A DNA stretch of 52,352 nucleotides from positions 1-52,352 of the forward strand of contig JAFZPV010000036.1 in NCBI GenBank assembly GCA_017552535.1, written 5' to 3'. The notes beneath the pieces are model-generated. The model was not told the origin of the DNA, did not search any database, and saw only the letters and a list, made by a program, of their open reading frames with translations. Shown here piece after piece: positions 39,825 to 52,120 of the stretch (position 1 is the stretch's first letter; the number at the start of each line of letters is the position of its first letter). The translations under genes and the position numbers were made by a program. This DNA is from Clostridia bacterium (GTDB lineage: Bacteria; Bacillota; Clostridia; Christensenellales; Aristaeellaceae).

Positions 39825-41795
39825 ATGGCACAGGATTATACCGCAAAAGATATTACCGTACTGGAAGGCCTTGACGCAGTGCGCATGCGCCCGGGAATGT
39901 ATATAGGTTCCACCGGCAGCCGGGGCCTGCACCACCTGGTGTGGGAGATCGTGGACAACGCCATCGACGAGGCCTCGAACGGTTACGCCTCCGAGATCAG
40001 CGTCACCCTCAAAAAGGACGGCTCCTGCGAGGTGACCGACAACGGCCGCGGCCTGCCCGTGGACATCCACCCCAAGCTCGGCGTGAGCGCGGTGGAGGTC
40101 ATCTACACCCAGCTGCACGCGGGCGGAAAATTCGACAACAAGAACTACGCCTATTCCGGCGGCCTGCACGGCGTGGGTGCCAGCGTGGTGAACGCCCTGA
40201 GCGCCTGGTGCACCGTGGACGTATACCGGGACTTTACCCACTATTTCATGCGCTTTGAGAGCGTGGAAGACCCCAAGACCCACAAGATCATTTCCGGCCG
40301 CCCGGTGGCGCCGCTGGAAAAACTGGGCAACACCCGCAAGCGCGGCACCACCATATGCTTTTTGCCGGACGAGCGCGTGTTTGAGGACATCACTTTTAAC
40401 GGCGACACCGTGCGCCACCGCATACGGGAGCTGGCGTATTTAAACAAGGGCGTTCGGTTCATCTTTACCGACGAGCGCGTGAAGGACGAAAAGTACCGGC
40501 GCATCGAATACCTCTACGACGGCGGCCTTACCGACTTTGTGGGCTATCTGAACAAGGATAAGACCACCATCACCGAGCCCATCCTGCTGGAGGGCGACAC
40601 GGGGGACATGCGCATACGCGCCTGCATCCAGTATACGGATTCCTACACTGAGAGCATCTTTTCCTTCGTGAACAACATCCCCACTCCGGAGGGCGGCACC
40701 CACGAGACCGGCTTCAAGGCCGCGCTCACCAAGGTGTTCAACGATTACGCGCGCAAGTCCGGCGTGCTCAAGGAGAAGGACAACAACCTGCAGGGCGAGG
40801 ACTACCGGGAGGGCATCACGGCGGTGCTGGCCGTGAACGTGAAAAATCCCCAGTTCGAGGGTCAGACCAAGGGCCGCCTGGGCAATCCCGAGGTGAGGCC
40901 CATCGTGGAAGGCTGGATCGGGGAAAAGCTTTCCGTGCACCTGGAGGACCTCAAAAACCAGACCTCCGCCCGCCTGATCCTGGACAAAGCCGTGAAGGCG
41001 GCCAAGGTCAGGGAGGCCACCCGTAAGGCCAAGGAGGTGGCCCGCCAGAAAAACGAGCTGGAGGCCGCGCCCCTGGTGGGCAAGCTTTCCGCCTGCACGG
41101 GCAGGGACGCCAAGCTCAACGAATTGTTCATCGTGGAGGGCGATTCCGCCGGCGGCAGCGCCAAGCAGGGCCGCGACAGGCGCTTTCAGGCCATACTGCC
41201 CCTGCGCGGCAAGCCCCTGAACTCCGAAAAGAAGCGTTTGGACCAGGTGCTGGCCAACGAGGAGATCCGCTCCATGATCACGGCGCTGGGCACGGGCATC
41301 GGCGAGGACTTCGACCTGAGCCGCCTGAAGTACGACAAGGTCATCATCCTCTCGGACGCGGACCAGGACGGCGCGCACATCCGGGCCATCCTGCTCACCT
41401 TCTTCTACCGCTACATGAAGCCTCTGATCACCGAGGGCCACGTGTACATGGGCATGCCGCCGCTGTACAAGATCCAGAAGGGCGACACATCCATTTACTG
41501 CTACGACGACAAGGAACTGAACGAAGCCATGAAGGGCGTGGGCAAAGGCTATACCCTGCAGCGCTACAAGGGCCTTGGCGAGATGAATCCGGAGCAGCTT
41601 TGGGAGACCACCATGAATCCCGAGGGCCGCAAGCTCACCCAGGTATCCATCGAGGACGACACCGAAGCCGAGCGCATGGTGACGATCCTCATGGGCGACA
41701 AGGTGGAGCCCCGCAAGGACTACATCTTCATGTACGCCGATTTCAACAAAAAAGACGACTTCCAGCCCGTCGGCGAGGAAGGAGGCCGAGCCTAA
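39825..41795 (+). CDS. gyrB: Type IIA topoisomerase subunit B (GyrB/ParE)
   Basis: 656 residues. GHKL ATPase domain with EIVDNAIDEA (about 41), VTDNGRGLPV (about 69) and GGLHGVGASVVNALS (about 110); transducer; then the TOPRIM domain with FIVEGDSAGGSAKQGRDRRF (about 435, catalytic Glu) and ILSDADQDGAHI (about 506). PLRGKPLNSEKKR resembles GyrB more than ParE, but a second copy by the replication origin may exist elsewhere, so gyrase versus topoisomerase IV is unresolved. Start follows GGAGG. The gene ends directly at the gyrA start (no gap; GAAGGAGG within its last codons is the SD for gyrA). Confidence 0.95.
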   Translation: MAQDYTAKDITVLEGLDAVRMRPGMYIGSTGSRGLHHLVWEIVDNAIDEASNGYASEISVTLKKDGSCEVTDNGRGLPVDIHPKLGVSAVEVIYTQLHAGGKFDNKNYAYSGGLHGVGASVVNALSAWCTVDVYRDFTHYFMRFESVEDPKTHKIISGRPVAPLEKLGNTRKRGTTICFLPDERVFEDITFNGDTVRHRIRELAYLNKGVRFIFTDERVKDEKYRRIEYLYDGGLTDFVGYLNKDKTTITEPILLEGDTGDMRIRACIQYTDSYTESIFSFVNNIPTPEGGTHETGFKAALTKVFNDYARKSGVLKEKDNNLQGEDYREGITAVLAVNVKNPQFEGQTKGRLGNPEVRPIVEGWIGEKLSVHLEDLKNQTSARLILDKAVKAAKVREATRKAKEVARQKNELEAAPLVGKLSACTGRDAKLNELFIVEGDSAGGSAKQGRDRRFQAILPLRGKPLNSEKKRLDQVLANEEIRSMITALGTGIGEDFDLSRLKYDKVIILSDADQDGAHIRAILLTFFYRYMKPLITEGHVYMGMPPLYKIQKGDTSIYCYDDKELNEAMKGVGKGYTLQRYKGLGEMNPEQLWETTMNPEGRKLTQVSIEDDTEAERMVTILMGDKVEPRKDYIFMYADFNKKDDFQPVGEEGGRA

Positions 41796-44234
41796 ATGCC
41801 CAAAAAGACCCGAAACGAGCCCATGAAAGGCGTCAAGACCGAGGTCATCATGCAAAAGACCATGGAGAGCGTGATGCACGCCTCCATGATGCCCTACTCT
41901 GAGCACGTCATCCTGGACCGGGCATTGCCCCGGGTGGAGGACGGCTTAAAGCCCGTGCAGCGGCGCATCCTCTACACCATGCAGGAACTGGCGCTCACGC
42001 CGGACAAGCCTCACCGAAAATGCGCCCGCATCGTGGGCGACTGCCTGGGCAAATACCATCCCCACGGCGATTCTTCCGTGTACGGCGCGCTGGCGCGCAT
42101 GGCGCAGGATTTTGCCCTGCGCGCGCCTTTGGTGGACGGACACGGCAACTTCGGCTCCATCGACGGCGACAGCCCCGCCGCCATGCGATACACCGAAGCC
42201 CGCATGACCCCGCTGGCCGTGGAGATGCTCAAGGATATCGACAAGGACACCGTGGATTTCCACCTGAACTTTGACGATACCCAGCGCGAGCCGGACCTTC
42301 TGCCCGGCAGCTTTCCCAACATCCTCGTAAACGGCGCGGACGGCATTGCTGTGGGCCTTGCCACCAACATCCCGCCCCACAACCTGGGGGAGGCTATTGA
42401 TGGCGTGATCGCCGTGATGGACAGGCCGGACATCACCACGCGGGAGCTTATGCAGTTTATCCCCGGGCCGGACTTTCCCACCGGCGGCGTTCTGGCCTGC
42501 ACCGAGGAACTGTACCAGGCCTACGAGACCGGGCGCGGCAAGGTACAGCTGCGCGCCAAGGTGGATATCGAGAAAGGGCAGAACGGCCGCACCCTTCTGG
42601 TGATGACCGAGATGACCTACGGCAAAAACAAGGCAGCGCTGCTTGAAAAGATCCTGAGGCTCTCCGAGGAAAAGAAAGAGCTCTTCGCCGACATCTACGA
42701 TATCCGCGACGAGAGTGACCGCACGGGCATGCGCGCCGTAATCGAGCTTAAGCGCGACGCCGACCCCGAGCGCGTGCTGGCGGGCCTGTACAAATACAGC
42801 GAGCTGCAGGATACCGTGGGCGTGAACATGGTTTGCATCGCCGAGGGCAAGCCCATGCAGCTGGGCCTGAAGGCCATACTGCAGTATTACATCCGGCACC
42901 GCAAAAACGTGGTGCTGCGCCGCACGAAATACGATCTGGACAAGGCGAAGGCCCGCGCCCACATCCTGGAGGGCCTGATCATCGCCGTGGACAACCTGGA
43001 TGAGGTGATCGCCCTCATCCGTTCCAGCAAAAACCCCAAGGAAGCCCGTGAGCGCCTGATGAAGCGCTTTTCCCTCACGGAGATCCAGGCCCAGGCCATC
43101 CTGGACATGCGCCTGCAGAGGCTCACGAACCTGGAGATCCTTACCCTGCGGGAGGAATATGCCCAGGTACTCAAGCTCATCAAATACCTGGAGAGCATCT
43201 TAAAGAGCGAAAAAAAGCTCATGCAGGTGATCAAGGACGAGCTTCTGGAGGTCAAGAGCAAATACGCCGATCCCCGGCGCACCAGGCTGGTGGACGCCTT
43301 TGAGGAAAAGGAGCCCGAGCCCCTGCCGCGCGTGGCGGAGGAGGCGCTGGTATATGTAAGCCGCGCAGGCTTTATAAAGCGCGTTTCGCCCCGACTGTTC
43401 GACAAGGCAGTAGCTTCCGGCGAGGCGGCGGACGTGGGGGACCATCTCTTCCGCTGCGACACGGATACCAGGCTTTTGTTCTTCACCAACCGCGGCAACT
43501 GCTATCCGCTCACGGTGGACAAGCTGCCGGAGGTGCGCGTGAAAGACCGCGGCACGCCCCCGGGCGGCCTGCTGGCCGGCCTCGAGGCGGGAGAGGCGCC
43601 GGTGAGCGTGCTGGCGGTTTCGCCCGGCGCATTCGAAGGAACGCTTCTGTTCGTTTCCGAGGGCGGCGTGGTGAAGCGCACTGCATTCGGCGAGTACGAT
43701 ATCAACCGCGCCCGCTTCCAGGCCTGCGGTCTCAAGGCGGGGGACAGCCTGAAGCAGGTCGCGCTCCTCGGGGACGAAGAGAACCTGCTGATCCTCACGC
43801 AGAACGGCATGAGCGTGCACTTCCGCATGGAGGAGATCACGGTGATCGGCCGCACCGGCGCCGGCGTAAAGGGAATAAGCCTTGCCGCGGACGACAAGGT
43901 GTTTGCCGCCTTCCCCAACAGTGAGGAAGGGGAGACGCTGCTGGTGAGCGACAAGGGCTTCATGAAGCGCGTGCTTCTGATCGACTACGATCTGCAGGCC
44001 CGCGGGGGCAAGGGCGTCAAATGCTTTAACTTCCTTAAAAACGGCTCCAACGGCAGCCGCATCGCCGGCGCGCTCGTGGTAAAAGAACCCTTCGACTTCG
44101 AGTACCGCCAGAAGAGCGGCACCGCGCTCACCCTCAACACGGATACCGTGCGCATAGAACGCCGCGAGAGCAAAGGCACCATGTACGCCATGTGCGTGCT
44201 GGACGACGTGATCGAGGAAGTGCGCAGGGTCTGA
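41796..44234 (+). CDS. gyrA: Type IIA topoisomerase subunit A (GyrA/ParC)
   Basis: 812 residues. N-terminal breakage-reunion domain with [18 protein letters not shown] (about 43), catalytic Tyr132 in [10 protein letters not shown], and GyrA-like [16 protein letters not shown]-terminal beta-pinwheel repeats contain QARGGKG (734-740), a one-mismatch GyrA box, which supports a gyrase. At the position of E. coli GyrA Asp87 it has Gly97 (codon 42084-42086) while the Ser83 equivalent is Ser93; Asp87Gly is a known quinolone-resistance change in Enterobacteria. Translation is coupled to the B subunit. Dabb-family gene follows 28 bases later. Confidence 0.94.
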
Positions 44235-44262: not shown

Positions 44263-44550
44263 ATGATCCGTCATATCGTCATGTTCAAGATCAAGGACGA
44301 GTACAAAAGCGAGCTGCCCTCTCTGGTGCAGGGCTTTTACGGCATGAAGGGGAAGATCGAGGGCATGCTGGACCTGGAGGCCGGGCAGGACATCCTGGGC
44401 AGCGAACGCTCCTACGACCTGGCGCTGATCACGCTGTTTGAAGACCGCGCCGCTTTCGATGCCTACCAGACGCATCCGGTGCATATGCCCGTCAAAAAGC
44501 GCATGCACGAGGTTCGCTCCGCCTCGGTGGCCTGCGATTTCGAGGTATAA
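44263..44550 (+). CDS. Dabb-family (stress-responsive alpha/beta barrel) protein
   Basis: 95 residues, one dimeric alpha-beta barrel (Dabb) domain: MIRHIVMFKIKD at the start, an LPSLVQGFYGM helix, DLALITLFEDRAAFDAYQ (about 52) and HPVHMPVKKRMHEV. Dabb proteins are small dimers with varied or unknown functions, some linked to stress. SD AGGAGG with six-base spacing. It follows gyrA closely and may be read with it by convenience rather than function. Confidence 0.93.
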   Translation: MIRHIVMFKIKDEYKSELPSLVQGFYGMKGKIEGMLDLEAGQDILGSERSYDLALITLFEDRAAFDAYQTHPVHMPVKKRMHEVRSASVACDFEV

Positions 44551-44600
44551 GGCCAAGACAGGCTCTCCACGGTCGCTCGGGAATGGCGGTCCTGCATTCC

Positions 44601-44698
44601 ACCTCATCACCGCCTGCGGCGGAGCTTCCCCTGAAGGGGAAGCCTGATTTGCCTTCTCCTGGAGGAGAAGGTGGGCCGCGAAGCGGATCGGATGAGGT
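44601..44698. repeat. 98-bp MITE-like interspersed repeat
   Basis: Ends are inverted, ACCTCATC and GATGAGGT. Inside are two palindromes, CTTCCCCTGAAGGGGAAG and CTTCTCCTGGAGGAGAAG, and a GCGAAGCGGATCG tail. Elements with the same boxes are frequent in Firmicutes genomes of the gut (from memory). Non-autonomous, no transposase inside. Confidence 0.75.
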
Positions 44699-44749
44699 GT
44701 GGGTCTGACAGAAGTCCCTGAGTTTGCGAAAAAGACCCCAAAACAGTAC

Positions 44750-44787
44750 ACGCCGGCGGTGCGGGAATGTTCCCGCACCGCCGGCGT
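44750..44787 (-). terminator. 18-bp perfect hairpin ending the DUF4956 transcript
   Basis: Perfect 18-bp arms (ACGCCGGCGGTGCGGGAA at 44750-44767) with only TG between. On the leftward strand a T-rich stretch (TGTACTGTTTTGG) follows, so it probably ends the CotH operon. Confidence 0.75.
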
Positions 44788-44803
44788 ATGTTATCCCTTG
44801 GTC

Positions 44804-45472
44804 TTACAGAGTATCCGCCTTGTAGCTCACCAGAGAGGCTTCCTTGATGCCCTGCAGGGAGAGCAGCTTATTCAGGAAGGCTTCGCTCTTTTCCACGCGC
44901 ACTTCGTAGGTCAGTTCAATGCCGCTGCCGGTCACGGTCTTGCTCTTGAGCTGCTGATAACGTACCCTCGTGAGCAGCTTCTGGGCGTTCGCCTCGCCTT
45001 CGGAGTCGGCGCGCACCACCAGCAGGTAGCTGTCTTCGCCCTTGTTCATGATCACGCTGCGCAGCACGAAGATCACCACCGCGATGCCCACCACGGCGAT
45101 GGCGGACAGAAGGAACTGGCCGGCGCCCAGCAGGATGCCCATGGTGAGGGCCCAGAACATGTAGGCGGTATCCAGCGGGTCCTTGACCGCCGTGCGGAAG
45201 CGGACGATGGACAGCGCGCCCACCATGCCCATGGACAGCGCCACGTTGTTGCGGATGCACAGCACCACCGGCGCGGTGATAGTGGTCATCAGGATCAGGG
45301 TCAGGGCGAAGTTCTGCGAGAACATCACGCCCCGGAAGGTCTTCTTGTATACCCAGTAGATGAACAGGCCAACGGCGAAGGCCATCAGCAGCGTAAAGAT
45401 CACCAGCGCGATGGAGTTGGCGCCGATGGACTGATTCTGAAAGATCTCCTGGAAGATTTTGCTGTTTTTCAC
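44804..45472 (-). CDS. DUF4956 membrane protein
   Basis: 222 residues. Four membrane helices (about 20-42, 58-76, 105-125, 130-148; hydrophobic segments such as ALVIFTLLMAFAVGLFIYWV) then a soluble ferredoxin-like C-terminal domain (about 150-220, ending with EASLVSY). Contains VGALSIVRFRTAVKDPLDTAYMFWAL (shortened here) with a conserved Arg-Phe-Arg. DUF4956 is typically encoded next to VTC-domain polyphosphate polymerases, as here. GTG start at 45472 with AAGGGGA upstream. 60 bases after the VTC gene. Role unknown; a membrane partner of VTC is inferred. Confidence 0.92.
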   Translation of the reverse strand: MKNSKIFQEIFQNQSIGANSIALVIFTLLMAFAVGLFIYWVYKKTFRGVMFSQNFALTLILMTTITAPVVLCIRNNVALSMGMVGALSIVRFRTAVKDPLDTAYMFWALTMGILLGAGQFLLSAIAVVGIAVVIFVLRSVIMNKGEDSYLLVVRADSEGEANAQKLLTRVRYQQLKSKTVTGSGIELTYEVRVEKSEAFLNKLLSLQGIKEASLVSYKADTL

Positions 45473-45532
45473 GAGGTCGGTCCCCTTTCGATTGGTATTA
45501 AAGTGTTTATGTTCAGCCTCGCGGCCAAATCG

Positions 45533-46240
45533 TCATGCGAGAGGTTCAAAGCGGCGGCACAGGACGTACTTGGAGATGGCGCAGTATTCGGTGGGCGTAT
45601 CGTACAGGATCGCCGCCACGAAGTCCGGAAGATACCGGTCGTATTTGACCTCCAGGATCTCGCGCCCGTCGTCCAGGGGGCTCAGCGTGAGCAGGCGGCT
45701 GCTGTACAGGTCTGTGCTGCCGGGGCAGGTGGCCAGATGCTTGTCGAAGGTCACGCGTACGTTTTCCACGCGGCCCACGAAGGCTTCGCGGGTATAGTCC
45801 ACGATGGTCTTTGCCCGCAGCAGGTGGTTTCGCATCTCGGCGTACATATCCAGCAGCAGCGGGTCGTCATACCTGAGCAGCGGAGAGGGGTTGCCTTCGA
45901 TCAGCTGCTGGGCGAGCTTTCGGCTGATGCGGCAGGCGGACTTCTGGATGAGGTTTCCTTCCTTGCGCTTGCGCTCCAGGTACGTCACGTCTTCCTTCAG
46001 GCTGTAGATGCGTATGCGGTACTTGTCGCGGTGGGCGACGCCGTCCATTTTGTCGTAATAGGCGCTGTTGAAGACGTCGTCAAAGTACAGGGAGCGGATA
46101 AAGTAGTTGCCGTCTTTGTCGGCGTGGCTGTCCCTGGAGAGCACGCGGCTCAGGCGGGAGCGCAGCACAGCCATGTCCTTCGGGTTGATCCAGTACTTTT
46201 TCTCGTGCCTTTCCGGAAGGCGGATGATCTTTTCTTCCAT
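45533..46240 (-). CDS. VTC-domain polyphosphate polymerase
   Basis: 235 residues, the stand-alone VTC (vacuolar transporter chaperone) fold. In yeast Vtc4 this tunnel-shaped domain makes polyphosphate from ATP, with basic residues lining the channel. Here the matching basic elements are RHEKKYWI (about 10), DKYRIRIYSL (about 72), YLERKRKEGN (about 87), VDYTREAFVG (about 147) and EVKYDRYLPD (about 198). Soluble, no anchor. Start follows GGGAGG that overlaps the CotH stop. Middle gene of the CotH-VTC-DUF4956 operon, 10 bases after CotH. Confidence 0.94.
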   Translation of the reverse strand: MEEKIIRLPERHEKKYWINPKDMAVLRSRLSRVLSRDSHADKDGNYFIRSLYFDDVFNSAYYDKMDGVAHRDKYRIRIYSLKEDVTYLERKRKEGNLIQKSACRISRKLAQQLIEGNPSPLLRYDDPLLLDMYAEMRNHLLRAKTIVDYTREAFVGRVENVRVTFDKHLATCPGSTDLYSSRLLTLSPLDDGREILEVKYDRYLPDFVAAILYDTPTEYCAISKYVLCRRFEPLA

Positions 46241-46250
46241 GGTGCCTCCC

Positions 46251-49200
46251 TTAATAGTACGAATAGCTCTTGCCCTTGTCGTCGATCAGGTCCACGCTGC
46301 GGGCGATCTCGCCGAAATAGTGCTCAAATTCGGTCTTGCCCAGGGCGTTGTAGAAGAAATACAGCAGGCGGCCCGGGCGGTTCTTGGCGTAATTGACGAA
46401 CTTCTTTAGGTGGTTGTTGTATTCCGTGCTTGAAACGCCCCAGCGGCTCAGGTGCTGACTGAGCTCCGGCTCCAGCTCGTTGTAGCGGTCTGAGATGCGC
46501 ACCAGCATTGCCTGGCTGGACCAGTCGCTCTTGAGCTTTTCGGCGAACAGCGACAGGAAATAGTCCCGGCAGCGGCGGTTCTTCATCAGGGCGATGAACA
46601 GGGAGTTGTCGCACTTGTTGCCGTCGCCCACGCCGCCGGGCTTGAGCCAGCGGCCTACGGAGTTGGTGTCGGTGTAGAAGGCCCAGTCAAAGTCGTACAG
46701 CACCCATCTCCACTTTCCGTCCACCGCGGCGCAGCGGTACTTTTTGCAGTTGAGCAGGTCGGTGTTGCCGGTGTAGATTTCCACGGCGCAGTAGTTGAGG
46801 TAGTTCCAAACGTCGATGTACTGCTCGGCGACGGCCAGCTCTTCGTCATTGTCGATGCCGTTCTTGGTGTACCAGTCCTTGAACTCCGTCCAGGTCTTCT
46901 TGGAGCCCTTCATCAGGTTGTCGTTTGCCTTGAGCAGGTCGATGCTGTCCTTGAGGCTCGTGTCCCAGCCTTCCCACTGGCAGATGGAATAGGTGTTCAC
47001 GCGCTCGCGCATATTGTAGTGGCCCCAGTATTCGCCGTTTAAATACACGATGGCCAGGCTGGTGTCCTGATACATCACGTCCAGCCCTTCGGCGAGGGAG
47101 GAGAGGATGCTGTCGCGCATGCGGGTATAGCGGGTATCCTGGCCGGACTGCCTGAGCAGGAAGGATTGGTATTCGGTATAGTCCCGGTTGGGGAAGAGTT
47201 TGGCGTAAAAGCGGTTCTGGCCGTATTTGGAGTTGGCGATCACCTTGAAGGACTTCTGGTTCTCCTGGCGGCTGTACTGGCCGTGCAGGCGCACGCCGCA
47301 GCCCTGGGAGAGGATCGTGCCGCTTTCTTCGTCAAACAGTTCCACGTTGGCCGTCTTTTCCCAGGTCATCCAGAAGTTGGCGCCCTTGTTGATGGAGCCG
47401 TAGGGGGCGGAGGCGGTGGCGTTCGGGCCTTTTACGTACAGGCCCTTGCTGTAGCCCCACAGGTCCTCGGGGTCCATCACCAGCGAAACCACCTGCATCG
47501 TGTGGTGTACGCCGAAAAAGTACGTCTGGGTGTTGATGAGGGAGGAGAGCTGCCCGTTCTTGGCGGCGATGGCCCGCACCACCGTGGTCTCGCTCAGATG
47601 GATGGGACCTTCGTATACATATGTGCGGGTGGTGCCGGAGCGCCTGGAGGCGTATTCCGGGTCCACGGTATAGCTGTAGCCGTTTACTTCGGTAGGATCG
47701 GGCTCGGAGGAATCCAGCGTATAGTAGATGGTGGCGCCGTCCTCGCAGTATATCTCCAGCGTCAGGTAGTCGCCTGCCTCAAACAGACCGCCCTGGGTGG
47801 AGAAGGTGGGGGAGAGCATGCGCTCTTCGTAGCCCGCGCCAGCGTTGGCACTGCCGGGGGTGGCGGAGGCCAGGTAGTAAAAACCGCTGTCCAGGCTCGT
47901 GCCCATGCGGCCATAGGACATATCCGTATACTGCTGGCCCATCGGGCAGCGGTCCAGGATCTTTCCCGTGGGGTCGCTGAGCACCAGCGTTTCGCCCTCG
48001 GTGGCGGACAGGGAAAAGCTGGTGTGCAGGTACGCGCCCACTTTGTCGTCAAGACCGCTTAAATAGACGCCAATCAGCGAGCCCGCCGGCACTACGGTAC
48101 CTTCCGGAAACTGCCACTTGCGGGGCTTTCCGGGGTCGTCGCTCAGGCCGTAGCCGGAGATGTCCACGTTCTGGTTCGTGGCGTTTCGCAGCTCCACCCA
48201 GTCGTAACTGGAGTTGTTCACGTTGGTCTTGGAGGTGGACGCCATGATTTCGTTGATAAATATCCCGCTTGTATTTTGCGCCGCGAACTGACCGGAGATC
48301 AGCGCGGCGCTTGCAAAGGTGTTGGCCATGCCCGGCGTTGGTGCTTTGGTTGTCACCCAAACCTCGTCGGACTGCCTTGAGAGGGACTGATCGGCTTTCA
48401 GCAGATCGTACTCCACCTTGTCTATGATGTAGCCGGAGGAGTCGGTAAGGTATACGCCTTCCTTCTCGGTGGCCAGCTTGAAGTTGGTGTGCAGCGGTTT
48501 GGAGGCGTCGCGCCGGTCGTAGCCGGAGCAGTACACGATCATGTACTGGCCCGCGTCAATGGATATGTTGGGGAAGGTCCATTTGCGCAGGTTGTCCTCG
48601 CTGTCGCTTAAGCAGTAGCCCTGCAGGCTGATGGAATAGGAGGAAGAATTGTAGATCTCCACCCAGTCCACGTATTCGCCGTTTTCGTCCGCGGCGTAGG
48701 AAACGTTCTTCGCCATCAGCTCGGTCAGGCGGATGGGGCTGTCCTTCACCTGGCGGTTGGAGCGCAGCGCGAGGTAGTTCTCGTGGGTGTTTTCCATCAG
48801 GGGCGTGGGCTCGTCGCAGATTTGGAAGCTGCCGTCTATCTCCGCGTAGGAGGTGTTGGCGGTAAGCTCCGGCACGTTCAGTGACTGTACGGCTGTGCCT
48901 ACGGAGCTGAACAGGATGATGGTGTCGCCGGAGGAAGAGATCTTGAACGGCGCGTGGTAGGTGTAGCCGTAGATGTCCCTGGTGGTGCTGGTGCAGAACA
49001 CCAGCACGCGTTCCCCGCTTTTGAGCACGTGGCTGGGGAACTCAAAGTATTTGAGCATCAGGCTCGCGTCCTTGGCAAGCTTCCAGCCCTTTAAGTTCAC
49101 GTCGGAACCGGAAACGTTGGTGATCTCGATCCAGTCGGAATAGGCGCCTGTGTCATCCTGGATGGAAGAGGCGTTGGAGCTCATGATCTCGGTGATGCGA

Positions 49201-49403
49201 ACGGAACTGGCTACGTCGATCTCGGGCACGGCGACGCTTTCGTCCTGCTGGCGGGGAAACACTTTGTCCTGCAAAAACCAGCAAAGCAGGATGAAGGCAA
49301 GGCCGCCTGCGATCACGAGAGGCAGGTAGCGGTTTGTTTTTCCGCTGTTCTTTTTCGCCGCGGCCTTCTTTGCGGGCCGGGCGGATGCATGTTTATTCTG
49401 CAC
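46251..49403 (-). CDS. CotH-kinase protein with three lamin-tail domains
   Basis: 1050 residues, extracellular by its single N-terminal membrane anchor (about 28-45). In order: three lamin-tail (LTD) domains (about 68-170, 225-340, 378-500; e.g. VRITEIMSSNASS, YDWVELRNA), a chitobiase-like C-terminal domain (about 535-650), and a CotH kinase domain (about 655-960) with GVRLHGQYSRQENQKSF and WRWVLYDFDWAF (about 905, DFD metal motif). CotH kinases phosphorylate spore-coat or surface proteins. GTG start with GGAGG. First gene of an operon with VTC and DUF4956. LTD plus CotH at this size is seen in Clostridia. Confidence 0.94.
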   Translation of the reverse strand: MQNKHASARPAKKAAAKKNSGKTNRYLPLVIAGGLAFILLCWFLQDKVFPRQQDESVAVPEIDVASSVRITEIMSSNASSIQDDTGAYSDWIEITNVSGSDVNLKGWKLAKDASLMLKYFEFPSHVLKSGERVLVFCTSTTRDIYGYTYHAPFKISSSGDTIILFSSVGTAVQSLNVPELTANTSYAEIDGSFQICDEPTPLMENTHENYLALRSNRQVKDSPIRLTELMAKNVSYAADENGEYVDWVEIYNSSSYSISLQGYCLSDSEDNLRKWTFPNISIDAGQYMIVYCSGYDRRDASKPLHTNFKLATEKEGVYLTDSSGYIIDKVEYDLLKADQSLSRQSDEVWVTTKAPTPGMANTFASAALISGQFAAQNTSGIFINEIMASTSKTNVNNSSYDWVELRNATNQNVDISGYGLSDDPGKPRKWQFPEGTVVPAGSLIGVYLSGLDDKVGAYLHTSFSLSATEGETLVLSDPTGKILDRCPMGQQYTDMSYGRMGTSLDSGFYYLASATPGSANAGAGYEERMLSPTFSTQGGLFEAGDYLTLEIYCEDGATIYYTLDSSEPDPTEVNGYSYTVDPEYASRRSGTTRTYVYEGPIHLSETTVVRAIAAKNGQLSSLINTQTYFFGVHHTMQVVSLVMDPEDLWGYSKGLYVKGPNATASAPYGSINKGANFWMTWEKTANVELFDEESGTILSQGCGVRLHGQYSRQENQKSFKVIANSKYGQNRFYAKLFPNRDYTEYQSFLLRQSGQDTRYTRMRDSILSSLAEGLDVMYQDTSLAIVYLNGEYWGHYNMRERVNTYSICQWEGWDTSLKDSIDLLKANDNLMKGSKKTWTEFKDWYTKNGIDNDEELAVAEQYIDVWNYLNYCAVEIYTGNTDLLNCKKYRCAAVDGKWRWVLYDFDWAFYTDTNSVGRWLKPGGVGDGNKCDNSLFIALMKNRRCRDYFLSLFAEKLKSDWSSQAMLVRISDRYNELEPELSQHLSRWGVSSTEYNNHLKKFVNYAKNRPGRLLYFFYNALGKTEFEHYFGEIARSVDLIDDKGKSYSYY

Positions 49404-49500: not shown

Positions 49501-49528
49501 ATTATAGCGCCAAAGCGCTTTCTGCCAA
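49501..49528 (-). promoter_or_regulatory. CotH operon promoter
   Basis: -35 TTGGCA (49528-49523), 16-base spacer, -10 TATAAT (49506-49501). Confidence 0.75.
49510..49523. promoter_or_regulatory. Candidate cre-like/LacI-type operator in the CotH promoter
   Basis: AAAGCGCTTT core inside the spacer, matching the CcpA-type cre consensus at about 11 of 14 positions. If bound it would block the promoter. Alternative: an unrelated palindrome. Confidence 0.45.
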
Positions 49529-49547: not shown

Positions 49548-50864
49548 TCAGTTCAGCGGCAAAAAGTCGTAGCCTTCAGATCGGGCGTAGCTTTCGGCCC
49601 AGCTTCCTTCCGGCGCCAGTATGAGGGTGCCCGCCGGGAACGCACCCGGGGCGATATAGCATATGCCTGCGGGCAGGGCCGCCGCCCTGAGCCTCGGGCA
49701 GTACGCAAACACCGACGCGTCCAGATCGGTCACGCGGGAAGCGGAAAGGTCCGCGCAGGTGATGAGCGTTCCCGAAAACGCCTCTTCCCCCAGGGCCGAC
49801 AGAAGCGTGCCCGCCGTGAAGGTGTTCGGGCCGAACACCACCAGGCAGCCAAAGCCGTTTTCAAGCGCCCAGCGGTGGGCATAGCTTCCGGGAAAAGCCG
49901 CCAGCATCGCGCCGGAGGGGAAGGCGCCGTCCTCGATATCCGTTACGGTCGCGGGCAGGTACACGGTGCCGGGGAAGGGCAGAAGACCGAACGCGCCGGC
50001 CTGCACCCGCTCCACCTTGATGCCGTCTATGCTGGCTGGCACCGTCACCTGCGCGCTTTGGCCGGTGTAGCCGGTGATCACGCACGCGCCGTCCTCCACG
50101 CGGTACAAAAGCTCCTCCGGCGTGTACAGAGACCATACGGCGTACAGTGTGACGCTGCGGTTCTCCGTATAGCTGTCTCCGGGGGCGTAATCCGGCACGA
50201 TTGCGTCCGGGTCCGGACTCCATCCGGTAAAAACGTGCCCCGGCTGAACGGGCACCTGGCTGCTCAGGGTGAGGGGCACGCCTTCGATCTTGCTCTGGTT
50301 GCCCGGTACTCCGCTGCCGCCCTGGGCGCTGAAGTGCACCGCATAAGTCTCGTACGTGCCGCCGTACATGGTAAAATACCTGGTCACTGCGGTCCTGCCG
50401 CGCTTGATGCCTTTTTCGTAGCGGTTGGCGGGGATCTCGAAATACACGCAGAAATACCAGCCCGCGTCGTATGCACCCTGGGGCGTGTCCGGTACCTGGG
50501 ACAGGAAGGCGCCCACCTTCTTTTTGTTGTTCACCAGCTCGTATCCCAGGTATCCCAGCTGACCGTATATATCCTGCCAGGACTCAAAGCCGTTGCGCTC
50601 ACAGTAGTTGATCAGCGACTGCCTGCGGCTGTTCCACTGGCAGATGCCGTAGGCGTTTCCGCCGTCGCCGACGGCGTTCGGGCGGAAGTTGCTTTCGTAC
50701 TGGATGTTCGACATGATCCCGCAGGCTGCTGCCCGGTTGTAGCCAAGGGTTTCGGTGATGTATTCGTATACGATCTGCATGTTTTCGGCGGTGTCTGCCC
50801 GGGCGGAGAGCGCAGCAAAGCCAAGCGCCAACAGCGCCAGCGCGCAGACGACGGCTTTTTTCAT
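49548..50864 (-). CDS. Secreted phage-type lysozyme with InlB-like and leucine-rich repeats
   Basis: 438 residues. Signal peptide (about 1-25, MKKAVVCALALLALGFAAL). Phage-tail lysozyme domain (PF18013-like, about 28-150): YNRAAACGIMSNIQYESNF carries the likely catalytic Glu, NAYGICQWNSRRQSL follows. Next an InlB-B-repeat-like domain (about 195-265, HVFTGWSPD and TLYAVWS), then BspA-like leucine-rich repeats (about 275-430, AFGLLPFPGTVYLPATVTDIE). It should cleave peptidoglycan at the cell surface; the repeats may bind the wall. Start 50864 follows GAGGAGG; own promoter. Ends just before the CotH promoter. Confidence 0.93.
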   Translation of the reverse strand: MKKAVVCALALLALGFAALSARADTAENMQIVYEYITETLGYNRAAACGIMSNIQYESNFRPNAVGDGGNAYGICQWNSRRQSLINYCERNGFESWQDIYGQLGYLGYELVNNKKKVGAFLSQVPDTPQGAYDAGWYFCVYFEIPANRYEKGIKRGRTAVTRYFTMYGGTYETYAVHFSAQGGSGVPGNQSKIEGVPLTLSSQVPVQPGHVFTGWSPDPDAIVPDYAPGDSYTENRSVTLYAVWSLYTPEELLYRVEDGACVITGYTGQSAQVTVPASIDGIKVERVQAGAFGLLPFPGTVYLPATVTDIEDGAFPSGAMLAAFPGSYAHRWALENGFGCLVVFGPNTFTAGTLLSALGEEAFSGTLITCADLSASRVTDLDASVFAYCPRLRAAALPAGICYIAPGAFPAGTLILAPEGSWAESYARSEGYDFLPLN

Positions 50865-50899
50865 GCGCTCCTCCTCGTGATAAATACTTCTGCAATCAT

Positions 50900-50928
50900 A
50901 TGATAACATTTACAACAGGATTTGTCAA
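50900..50928 (-). promoter_or_regulatory. Promoter of the lysozyme gene
   Basis: -35 TTGACA (50928-50923), 17-base spacer, -10 TATCAT (50905-50900). Confidence 0.85.
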
Positions 50929-51053: not shown

Positions 51054-51066
51054 ATGATTATATAAT
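51038..51066 (+). promoter_or_regulatory. Promoter of the second UroD-like gene
   Basis: -35 TTGACT (51038-51043), 17-base spacer, -10 TATAAT (51061-51066). Confidence 0.85.
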
Positions 51067-51103
51067 GTGCATGTCAATTCACAAAGAAGACAGGGGTGGA
51101 ACC

Positions 51104-52120
51104 ATGAATTCAAAGCAGAGACTCAGCGCTTACCTGAAAGGTGAAAAAGTCGACCGCCGTCCAAGCCTCATCGTCATCGGCAGCGCCGTGTGCCGCTTTG
51201 CCAATGACGGCCGGGGCATGGACATCGAGACGTACTGCAAGGACTGGAAAAAGATGGCCCAGGCAGCCGCTGCTGCAGCCAGAGAATTCAAGCTGGATTT
51301 TATACAAATCGCATCCGACCTGCTGCGTGAGGCCGAAGGCTACGGCTCCCAGGTGACGTTCTACAAAGACAAGCTGCCCACGATGACCAGGGCGGCGCTC
51401 AGCGATATTTCGGAAGTGGACCGTCTGCGTCCGCTCAAGGCAAAGGATATACCGCGCCTGTACGATCTGGTAGAGGCAGCCCAGTGGGCTTTGTCCGATC
51501 CGGACGTGGACCCCATGGTGCTGGCGGTAGGCCCGATGACCGTAGCGGGCAACGTGCGCGGTGTGGAAGACCTGATGGTGGACATGCTGGACGAGCCTGA
51601 AGCCTGCGAAAAACTGCTCGATATCGTAAGCGACACCACGCTTGATTTCATCAGCTGCCTTGCGGAAAAAGGCGTGAAATACGTTTACGTCGCCGATCCG
51701 GTCGCTTCGCTCGTTTCGCCCGCGGTGTATGGAAAGTTTGTTTTCCCCGTACACAAAAAGATCTACGATCACATGAAAAAGCTTGGCATCACGGGCCGGC
51801 TGCACGTCTGCGGCAACACGTCCGGCATCATCAAGTATACCTCGGCGCTCGGCGCCGCGATCGTCGACGTCGATCATCTGGTGGACTTCCGCCAGGCGCT
51901 TGAGATCGCGGACGGCAAGTGCCTGCTCAACGGGAACATCGATCCTGTCGCCGACGTTTACACCTGTGACGCAGCGCATACCAGGCAGGCCATACTCGAT
52001 GCGGCTTCATCAGTCAGCAATGCCAGAGCGCTGTTCATGCCGGGCTGCGAGCTGCCCACGGATACGAAGGCAGAGAACATCCTGGCCATACACGAGGCGC
52101 TTGTGGAGATCGGAGGATAA
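51104..52120 (+). CDS. Uroporphyrinogen decarboxylase-like protein (MtaA/UroD superfamily)
   Basis: 338 residues, a UroD-type barrel closer in length to methylcobamide:CoM methyltransferases than to HemE. Elements: SKQRLSAYLKGEKVDRRP at the start, MVLAVGPMTVAGN (about 145), GRLHVCGNTSGII (about 230, His-x-Cys ligand) and LLNGNIDPVADV (about 275), then MPGCELPTDTKAENI. The His-x-Cys and late Cys suit zinc binding for methyl transfer to a thiol. Start 51104 follows AGGGGTGG; an earlier ATG lies inside the promoter. No corrinoid protein gene is nearby. Reaction unknown. Confidence 0.9.
   Translation: MNSKQRLSAYLKGEKVDRRPSLIVIGSAVCRFANDGRGMDIETYCKDWKKMAQAAAAAAREFKLDFIQIASDLLREAEGYGSQVTFYKDKLPTMTRAALSDISEVDRLRPLKAKDIPRLYDLVEAAQWALSDPDVDPMVLAVGPMTVAGNVRGVEDLMVDMLDEPEACEKLLDIVSDTTLDFISCLAEKGVKYVYVADPVASLVSPAVYGKFVFPVHKKIYDHMKKLGITGRLHVCGNTSGIIKYTSALGAAIVDVDHLVDFRQALEIADGKCLLNGNIDPVADVYTCDAAHTRQAILDAASSVSNARALFMPGCELPTDTKAENILAIHEALVEIGG

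What the first reader, a model, noticed from the sequence alone, without database searches (positions are those of the whole stretch)
44804..49403. CotH kinase, VTC polyphosphate polymerase and DUF4956 in one operon
Three genes read leftward with gaps of 10 and 60 bases, behind a promoter with a cre-like palindrome in its spacer. Seen: a surface-anchored 1050-residue protein with three lamin-tail domains and a CotH kinase domain, a soluble VTC domain with its basic tunnel residues, and a four-helix DUF4956 protein. Known: VTC makes polyphosphate from ATP; CotH is a protein kinase. Inference: polyphosphate made inside may be handled through DUF4956 and used with a phosphorylating surface protein, for instance in coat or envelope assembly. 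I know of no described mechanism linking all three.
Basis: partly seen in the sequence, partly recalled or inferred. Interest (0 to 1): 0.82.

Follow-up and report, generated by a model that had tools for sequence, protein, structure and literature searches.

The report
Polyphosphate maker paired with surface kinase
Three neighbouring bacterial genes look like a built-in machine that makes long phosphate chains inside the cell, probably passes them out through a dedicated membrane protein, and serves a kinase-like protein on the cell surface; the first two genes are practically never found apart in the genomes surveyed.

Summary
In detail: CotH, VTC and DUF4956 lie on the minus strand with gaps of 10 and 60 bases, between a good promoter and a strong terminator. 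The gene set itself is in print, as accessory genes of Gram-positive Pel loci. Added here: (1) VTC and DUF4956 go together (same 46 of 60 relatives; same 16 of 119 genomes across the phylum; 81 of 83 VTC genes adjacent) and their trees agree; (2) 50 of 52 trios among relatives are not Pel-linked, contrary to a 2025 statement; (3) the third gene is CotH or, mainly in a separate VTC lineage, a Cthe_2159 surface protein, never both (0 of 82); (4) CotHs here are mostly exported and keep their catalytic aspartates; three short spore-type CotHs lack an export signal. Best reading: VTC-DUF4956 is a membrane-coupled polyphosphate synthase, probably a translocase with an MgtC-like partner, serving a surface protein. 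Boldest open reading: exported polyphosphate feeds an extracellular kinase. Against it: a published VTC deletion showed no reported phenotype. Spore-coat assembly is unsupported (SpoIVA not found in 7 of 7 congeners); the cre-like site is not conserved.

The parts
49501..49528 (-). promoter of the unit, TTGGCA-16-TATAAT
   Evidence: 11 of 12 letters; -10 aligned in the window and 4 congeners
46251..49403 (-). predicted exported CotH-family protein, 1050 aa: membrane anchor, three lamin-tail domains, Fn3-associated/CHB_HEX domain, C-terminal CotH kinase domain
49272..49328 (-). N-terminal transmembrane anchor of CotH, residues 26-44
   Evidence: the Lys/Arg-rich stretch before it puts the rest outside (positive-inside rule, established knowledge)
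46374..47294 (-). CotH kinase domain, residues 704-1010, with D882 and D904 kept
45533..46240 (-). VTC (triphosphate tunnel) domain protein, 235 aa, predicted cytosolic polyphosphate polymerase
44804..45472 (-). DUF4956 membrane protein, 222 aa, remote MgtC resemblance; invariant R91 and R93 at the predicted cytosolic face; near-constant VTC partner
44748..44789 (-). terminator-like hairpin closing the unit (19 pairs, 14 G-C)

Best explanation
The three genes form one transcription unit whose core is a two-protein polyphosphate synthase. VTC, in the cytosol, makes polyphosphate from ATP; DUF4956, a membrane protein with MgtC-like resemblance, holds it at the membrane and most likely takes the nascent chain across, doing in bacteria what the Vtc1-type membrane helices do in yeast. 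The product serves the co-encoded surface protein: here the exported CotH kinase, elsewhere a Cthe_2159 beta-helix protein. Shown by sequence: operon anatomy, near-constant VTC-DUF4956 pairing with matching trees, conserved catalytic residues, export signal of CotH. Inferred: polyphosphate as product (about 0.8), translocation by DUF4956 (about 0.5), use of polyphosphate by or on the surface protein (about 0.4), polyphosphate as phosphate donor of CotH (about 0.2).
For: VTC-positive and DUF4956-positive genomes are the same 46 of 60 relatives, the same 16 of 119 across the phylum with equal copy numbers and the same 3 of 14 controls. 81 of 83 VTC genes have DUF4956 within 1.5 kb on the same strand; of the two others one lies at a contig edge and one is a VTC running into a stretch like the end of a CotH, apparently a decayed locus. 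VTC and DUF4956 distances correlate, r 0.917 over 79 loci; CotH follows both, r 0.856 and 0.85 over 51. VTC residues R11, K15, K73, R75, R77, E89, K91, K100, R162, E197, K199, S223, K224 are in 71 of 71; the profile finds yeast Vtc4 at 3.5e-20, with R75, R77, E197 and K224 falling on Vtc4 R264, R266, E426 and K458 if the chain is numbered by K458 (my count on the alignment; residue names). Two of the three glutamates of the second metal site of tripolyphosphatases (PMC4641920) are basic here by spacing (R11, K199). DUF4956: R91 and R93 invariant in 73; basic clusters on one predicted side. In yeast, basic residues line the VTC channel and are needed for vacuolar polyphosphate (PMC9911596, passages). 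CotH D882 and D904 are kept in 52 of 53, one gap; export signal in 47 of 50 VTC-linked CotHs with an intact start and in 7 of 7 of a further set, against 0 of 3 short spore-type CotHs.
Against: No product was measured and no structure predicted. In Streptococcus intermedius the VTC deletion still aggregated and no effect on Pel is reported for it, while DUF4956 and CotH deletions changed aggregation and Pel (PMC12345266): hard for a model in which both need VTC. E13, in 71 of 71, is acidic as in the phosphatases, where Vtc4 has Thr. The MgtC-like resemblance also fits a regulator. CotHs with a hydrophobic N-terminal segment occur in 3 relatives with no VTC found, G029, G046, G053, and CotHs away from VTC look exported just as often (52 of 54), so export does not by itself mark VTC-linked CotHs. 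VTC occurs without CotH in 2 of 60 relatives and 2 of 119 phylum genomes and in the control Bacteroides ihuae. The third gene is neither CotH nor Cthe_2159 in 16 of 82 loci, though only 4 of these have 3.5 kb of contig on both sides.
Confidence: 0.55

Rival explanations
1. Cytosolic phosphate storage with regulation: VTC makes intracellular polyphosphate and DUF4956 is an MgtC-like regulator with an ACT-like domain; nothing is exported, and the surface protein is only co-expressed.
For: 50 of 73 DUF4956 members give weak MgtC matches at E up to 1, best 3.6e-4; PMC12345266 reads its DUF4956 homologue as MgtC plus ACT and links it to phosphate metabolism.
Against: Does not explain why VTC-DUF4956 pairs have a CotH or Cthe_2159 gene on the same strand beside them in 65 of 82 loci, nor why CotH distances follow VTC distances.
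Confidence: 0.25
2. A surface-polysaccharide or adhesion module: the genes modify or anchor an exopolysaccharide, as suggested for Pel loci, and polyphosphate is a matrix component rather than a phosphate donor.
For: The trio is next to Pel genes in streptococci, clostridia and bifidobacteria (PMC7112168), in 2 of 52 trios here and in 3 of 80 wider loci; deletions of DUF4956 and CotH change aggregation and Pel; Pfam calls Cthe_2159 carbohydrate-binding.
Against: 50 of 52 trios among relatives have no PelF match nearby, and PelF was found in 4 of 60 genomes only, not in the window's.
Confidence: 0.15
3. Spore-coat assembly: CotH phosphorylates coat proteins and polyphosphate serves the coat.
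For: CotH of Bacillus subtilis phosphorylates coat proteins CotB and CotG (PMC7821199, passages).
Against: SpoIVA not found in 7 of 7 genomes of the genus; SpoIVA in 14 of 14 VTC-less relatives and 21 of 46 with VTC; the spore-type CotHs looked at are short and lack the export signal, 3 of 3.
Confidence: 0.03
4. Chance neighbourhood of three unrelated genes.
For: None found.
Confidence: 0.01

Closest known systems
cotH-PPP-DUF4956(-DUF4832) accessory genes of Gram-positive pel clusters (PMC7112168; SIR_1594-1592 in PMC12345266)
   Same: Same three families side by side
   Different: No PelF found in this genome; here the kinase domain is C-terminal behind three lamin-tail domains, whereas SIR_1594 is described with an N-terminal CotH and a C-terminal FN3 domain; most trios surveyed here are not Pel-linked, and Cthe_2159 can stand in CotH's place
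Yeast vacuolar transporter chaperone (VTC) complex
   Same: Homologous tunnel polymerase domain (Vtc4) with a membrane partner bearing conserved basic residues
   Different: Membrane partner is DUF4956, not the Vtc1-type domain (DUF202, name recalled); no SPX domain; the presumed destination is outside the cell, not a vacuole
Bacillus CotH spore-coat kinase (5jd9, 5jda)
   Same: Homologous kinase domain (profile E 1.7e-15), both catalytic aspartates
   Different: Predicted exported and anchored, with lamin-tail domains, in a genus where SpoIVA was not found
Clostridium perfringens NELoc-2 region (PMC2879425, passages)
   Same: Two VTC genes, each followed by a membrane protein of 222-226 aa, beside CotH
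   Different: Those membrane proteins are annotated there as tubulin/FtsZ GTPase; that they are DUF4956 is my inference

Membership tests
VTC-type polyphosphate polymerase (triphosphate tunnel family) | VTC domain with tunnel residues and catalytic lysine | tested here: met
   K224 aligns with the Lys of Vtc4's FSKF, K458 in PMC4641920's numbering; 71 of 71
VTC-type polyphosphate polymerase (triphosphate tunnel family) | basic residues in place of the acidic patch of tripolyphosphatases | tested here: inconclusive
   R11 71 of 71, R151 70 Arg and 1 Lys, K199 71 of 71 basic, but E13 acidic in 71 of 71; residue roles from PMC4641920 passages; positions matched by spacing, that of R151 to Glu-90 partly recalled
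VTC-type polyphosphate polymerase (triphosphate tunnel family) | makes polyphosphate from ATP | not testable with these tools
   needs the purified protein
CotH kinase | CotH domain and catalytic aspartates | tested here: met
   52 of 53 at D882 and at D904, one gap each
CotH kinase | kinase activity | not testable with these tools
   substrate and phosphate donor unknown
DUF4956 | match above Pfam's cut-off | tested here: met
   43.5 bits against 30.6
MgtC | match above Pfam's cut-off | tested here: not met
   18 bits against 31.4: remote resemblance only
Pel-linked accessory gene set | adjacent pelDEADAFG genes | tested here: not met
   no PelF match in the window's genome, which is 76.7% complete
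Eukaryotic VTC complex | Vtc1-type membrane domain and SPX domain | tested here: not met
   no such Pfam match at E 0.001 in the three proteins
Spore-coat system | sporulation genes in the organism | tested here: not met
   SpoIVA, the one gene tested, found in 0 of 7 genomes of the genus, 75-97% complete

The most novel reading that the evidence does not exclude
An extracytoplasmic phosphorylation system that carries its own energy supply: VTC makes polyphosphate inside, DUF4956 threads it out, and the anchored CotH kinase, where ATP is scarce, uses the exported chain as phosphate donor (or transfers the chain itself) to phosphorylate surface proteins; swapping CotH for a Cthe_2159 beta-helix turns the same exporter to another surface task.
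Probability: 0.18. Interest if true: 0.88.

Novelty: new variant of a known kind. Interest (0 to 1): 0.55.

Why it matters
It gives DUF4956 a testable job as the membrane half of a bacterial polyphosphate synthase, suggests that tunnel-type polymerases have two unrelated membrane partners in nature, corrects the impression that the CotH-VTC-DUF4956 set belongs to Pel loci, and raises the question of how kinases outside the cell get their phosphate. In this genus PPK1 was not found in 7 of 7 genomes, so VTC may be its main route to polyphosphate; PPK2 was not searched for.

Tried and rejected
Rejected: spore-coat role; cre control (palindrome only in the window among the regions compared); Pel membership; a repeated element at 44600-44637 (one copy in the window, and among 282 loci only in L002 and L004, which are copies of the window region). 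VTC as a plain substitute for PPK1: 23 relatives have both, 23 VTC only, 3 PPK1 only, 11 neither, so this was dropped except as a remark on the window's genus.

Strict form of the donor model (every exported CotH needs VTC): weakened by three relatives with CotH but no VTC found (G029, G046, G053), whose CotH ORFs carry a hydrophobic segment near the N-terminus; for G046 the segment lies about 99 residues into the ORF and the start is unsure.

Led nowhere: PDB searches with DUF4956 gave nothing or only noise, E 1.6 and above.

Rows dropped or merged: one search used 73 of 81 DUF4956 proteins (length 205-262 aa); one search used 71 of the 72 listed VTC rows (L060, with stops, left out) out of 82 extracted; one of 83 VTC matches (G008:C84, a stop inside) gave no ORF. 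One search used 79 loci, 51 of 52 CotH-type loci with one CotH each. CotH matches in pieces were merged by position: 118 CotHs, 70 unlinked pieces became 60 after merging and leaving out those under 600 bases. Some 'unlinked' CotHs may be the missing half of a locus broken at a contig end. Of 20 VTC copies outside the own genome in the phylum draw, 16 were fetched (not G146:C80, G150:C5:160364, G151:C13, G172), besides one lone DUF4956 and three short CotHs.
Full report
WHAT IS THERE. Three genes on the minus strand: CotH 46251-49403, VTC 45533-46240, DUF4956 44804-45472, gaps 10 and 60 bases. A promoter-like site (49528-49501, 11 of 12 letters) precedes them and a 19-pair terminator-like hairpin (44789-44748) follows. 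The -10 aligns in the window and four congeners; the palindrome in the spacer does not. The window is contig C47 of a 2.39 Mb draft genome, 62 contigs, 76.7% complete.

THE GENOME HAS THREE SUCH UNITS. Besides the window's CotH-VTC-DUF4956 there is VTC-DUF4956-CotH on C60 (CotH 756 aa, with an insert rich in Gly, Ser, Met) and VTC-DUF4956-Cthe_2159 on C34; a lone CotH lies on C51.

VTC AND DUF4956 GO TOGETHER. Of 60 relatives, 46 have VTC and the same 46 have DUF4956. 81 of 83 VTC genes have DUF4956 within 1.5 kb on the same strand; 81 of 85 DUF4956 matches have VTC nearby. The two VTC exceptions are one at a contig edge (L108) and one (L093) in which VTC runs in frame into a stretch like the end of CotH (28.6 bits with my own profile; Pfam CotH E 0.0083, below cut-off), which looks like a decayed VTC-DUF4956-CotH locus. 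In a draw of 119 genomes across the phylum VTC is in 16 and DUF4956 in the same 16, with equal copy numbers; outside the own genome 20 against 20, of which 18 pairs lie within 1.5 kb, one has CotH between, and one is split over two contig ends. The 14 control genomes agree, 3 and the same 3; one of these, Bacteroides ihuae, has no CotH match.

CotH IS THE USUAL THIRD GENE. In the 60 relatives 44 have VTC and CotH, 2 VTC only, 3 CotH only, 11 neither; in the 119 of the phylum 14 have both, 2 VTC only (G080, G120), 2 CotH only (G164, G177). 52 of 83 VTC loci have CotH within 2.6 kb; 54 of 118 CotHs are so linked. With my own profiles on 82 loci: CotH 52, Cthe_2159 13 on the same strand and 1 on the other, neither 16, both 0; only 4 of the 16 have 3.5 kb of contig on both sides. 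Of 11 CotH-less third genes that I gave to Pfam, 10 are Cthe_2159 (1; 9 of 10, chosen by eye; the other was an Ig-like protein). In 16 of the 20 phylum copies, also with my profiles: CotH 7, Cthe_2159 5, neither 4. The VTC tree of the 82 splits 17 against 65 with SH-aLRT 100; the CotH and Cthe_2159 labels need one change and the five gene orders four, the least possible, rows without either gene not counted. DUF4956 gives the same. These are quick trees without bootstrap. Distances correlate: VTC-DUF4956 r 0.917 over 79 loci; CotH-VTC 0.856, CotH-DUF4956 0.85 over 51; no permutation of 2000 reached any of them. That does not correct for shared ancestry, but the nearest CotH has the same gene order in 50 of 51 and comes from the same genome in 0 of 51, although 13 genomes hold two or more trios.

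WIDER. Nine of the 80 are probably contigs of the relatives' set.

NOT A PEL APPENDAGE. PelF is in 4 of 60 relatives and beside the trio in two loci, G001:C59 and G017:C3. [quoted passage not shown] 50 of 52 trios here have no PelF match nearby. Their scope may have been their own species, and draft contigs can hide neighbours. PMC7112168 (passages) describes the set and suggests that CotH may regulate Pel by phosphorylation.

NOT SPORE COAT. SpoIVA was found in 0 of 7 genomes of the genus, in 14 of 14 VTC-less relatives and in 21 of 46 with VTC.

IS VTC A POLYMERASE. Central residues are invariant in 71 of 71 and the profile finds yeast Vtc4 at 3.5e-20. Tripolyphosphatases of this fold hold a second metal with glutamates that Vtc4 lacks (PMC4641920, passages). 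Here, by spacing, R11 and K199 are basic and E13 is acidic: mostly polymerase-like, not clean. PPK1 was not found in 7 of 7 genomes of the genus.

DUF4956. Three hydrophobic regions that can hold four to five helices; basic clusters at 41-50, 91-100 and after 140 fall on one side, so the N-terminus is predicted outside and the C-terminal domain inside, next to VTC. R91 and R93 are invariant in 73. MgtC matches are weak but recur, 50 of 73 at E up to 1. In yeast the VTC channel is lined with basic residues needed for vacuolar polyphosphate (PMC9911596, passages). That DUF4956 does this job is inference.

CotH. The profile finds CotH structures 5jd9/5jda at 1.7e-15. D882 and D904 are kept in 52 of 53; D228Q and D251A inactivate B. 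subtilis CotH (PMC7821199, passages), and the alignment places our two aspartates at the matching NxD and WDxD motifs (my reading). Export signals by a crude hydropathy rule: 47 of 50 linked and 52 of 54 unlinked CotHs with intact starts in relatives; 7 of 7 linked in the phylum set; 0 of 3 short CotHs of 353-365 codons, two of them from genomes with no VTC match. So export is general among the long CotHs of these bacteria, and the contrast is with the short spore type.

AGAINST. The S. intermedius VTC mutant aggregated, and the paper reports changed Pel for the DUF4956 mutant (more) and the CotH mutant (less) only. Either VTC is redundant there, or DUF4956 and CotH act partly without it.

NOT IN PRINT, AS FAR AS SEARCHED. 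Ten searches of the held open-access library listed no paper that, by its title, abstract start or the passages I read, proposes DUF4956 as a polyphosphate transporter or polyphosphate as CotH's donor; listings were capped, and only ten papers were opened, in passages (PMC7112168, PMC2879425, PMC6848847, PMC10434189, PMC12345266 with one section, PMC10657179, PMC7821199, PMC9911596, PMC4641920; one more, by DOI, is not held). Subscription journals are mostly missing and preprints are not held.

Noticed in passing
window 49548-50909 (-): 453-aa protein with a phage tail lysozyme domain and a Listeria-Bacteroides repeat just upstream; genes of 446, 437 and 457 aa on the same strand precede CotH in three congeners (L045, L046, L050). 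Homology of those was not checked.
   Followed up: partly
L093:7965-9305 (G031): VTC running in frame into a stretch like the C-terminal part of CotH, with no DUF4956 nearby: probably a decayed VTC-DUF4956-CotH locus.
   Followed up: partly
window 51065-52120 (+): URO-D family protein resembling MtaA/CmuA corrinoid methyltransferases, below those curated cut-offs.
   Followed up: no
window 39825-44234 (+): Two adjoining large genes that look like the B and A subunits of a type II topoisomerase, followed by a Dabb-domain protein (44263-44550) that converges on the DUF4956 terminator. The subunit names are recalled from the sequence, not from a search.
   Followed up: no
L105:7179-8675 and L117:4136-5497: VTC proteins with long charged N-terminal extensions of well over 200 residues, rich in Lys and Glu.
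   Followed up: no
L127: Two long CotH genes in tandem before VTC and DUF4956.
   Followed up: no
L012:14733-17003 (G000:C60): CotH whose two halves are parted by a long insert rich in Gly, Ser, Met and Pro; Pfam matches it in two pieces.
   Followed up: no
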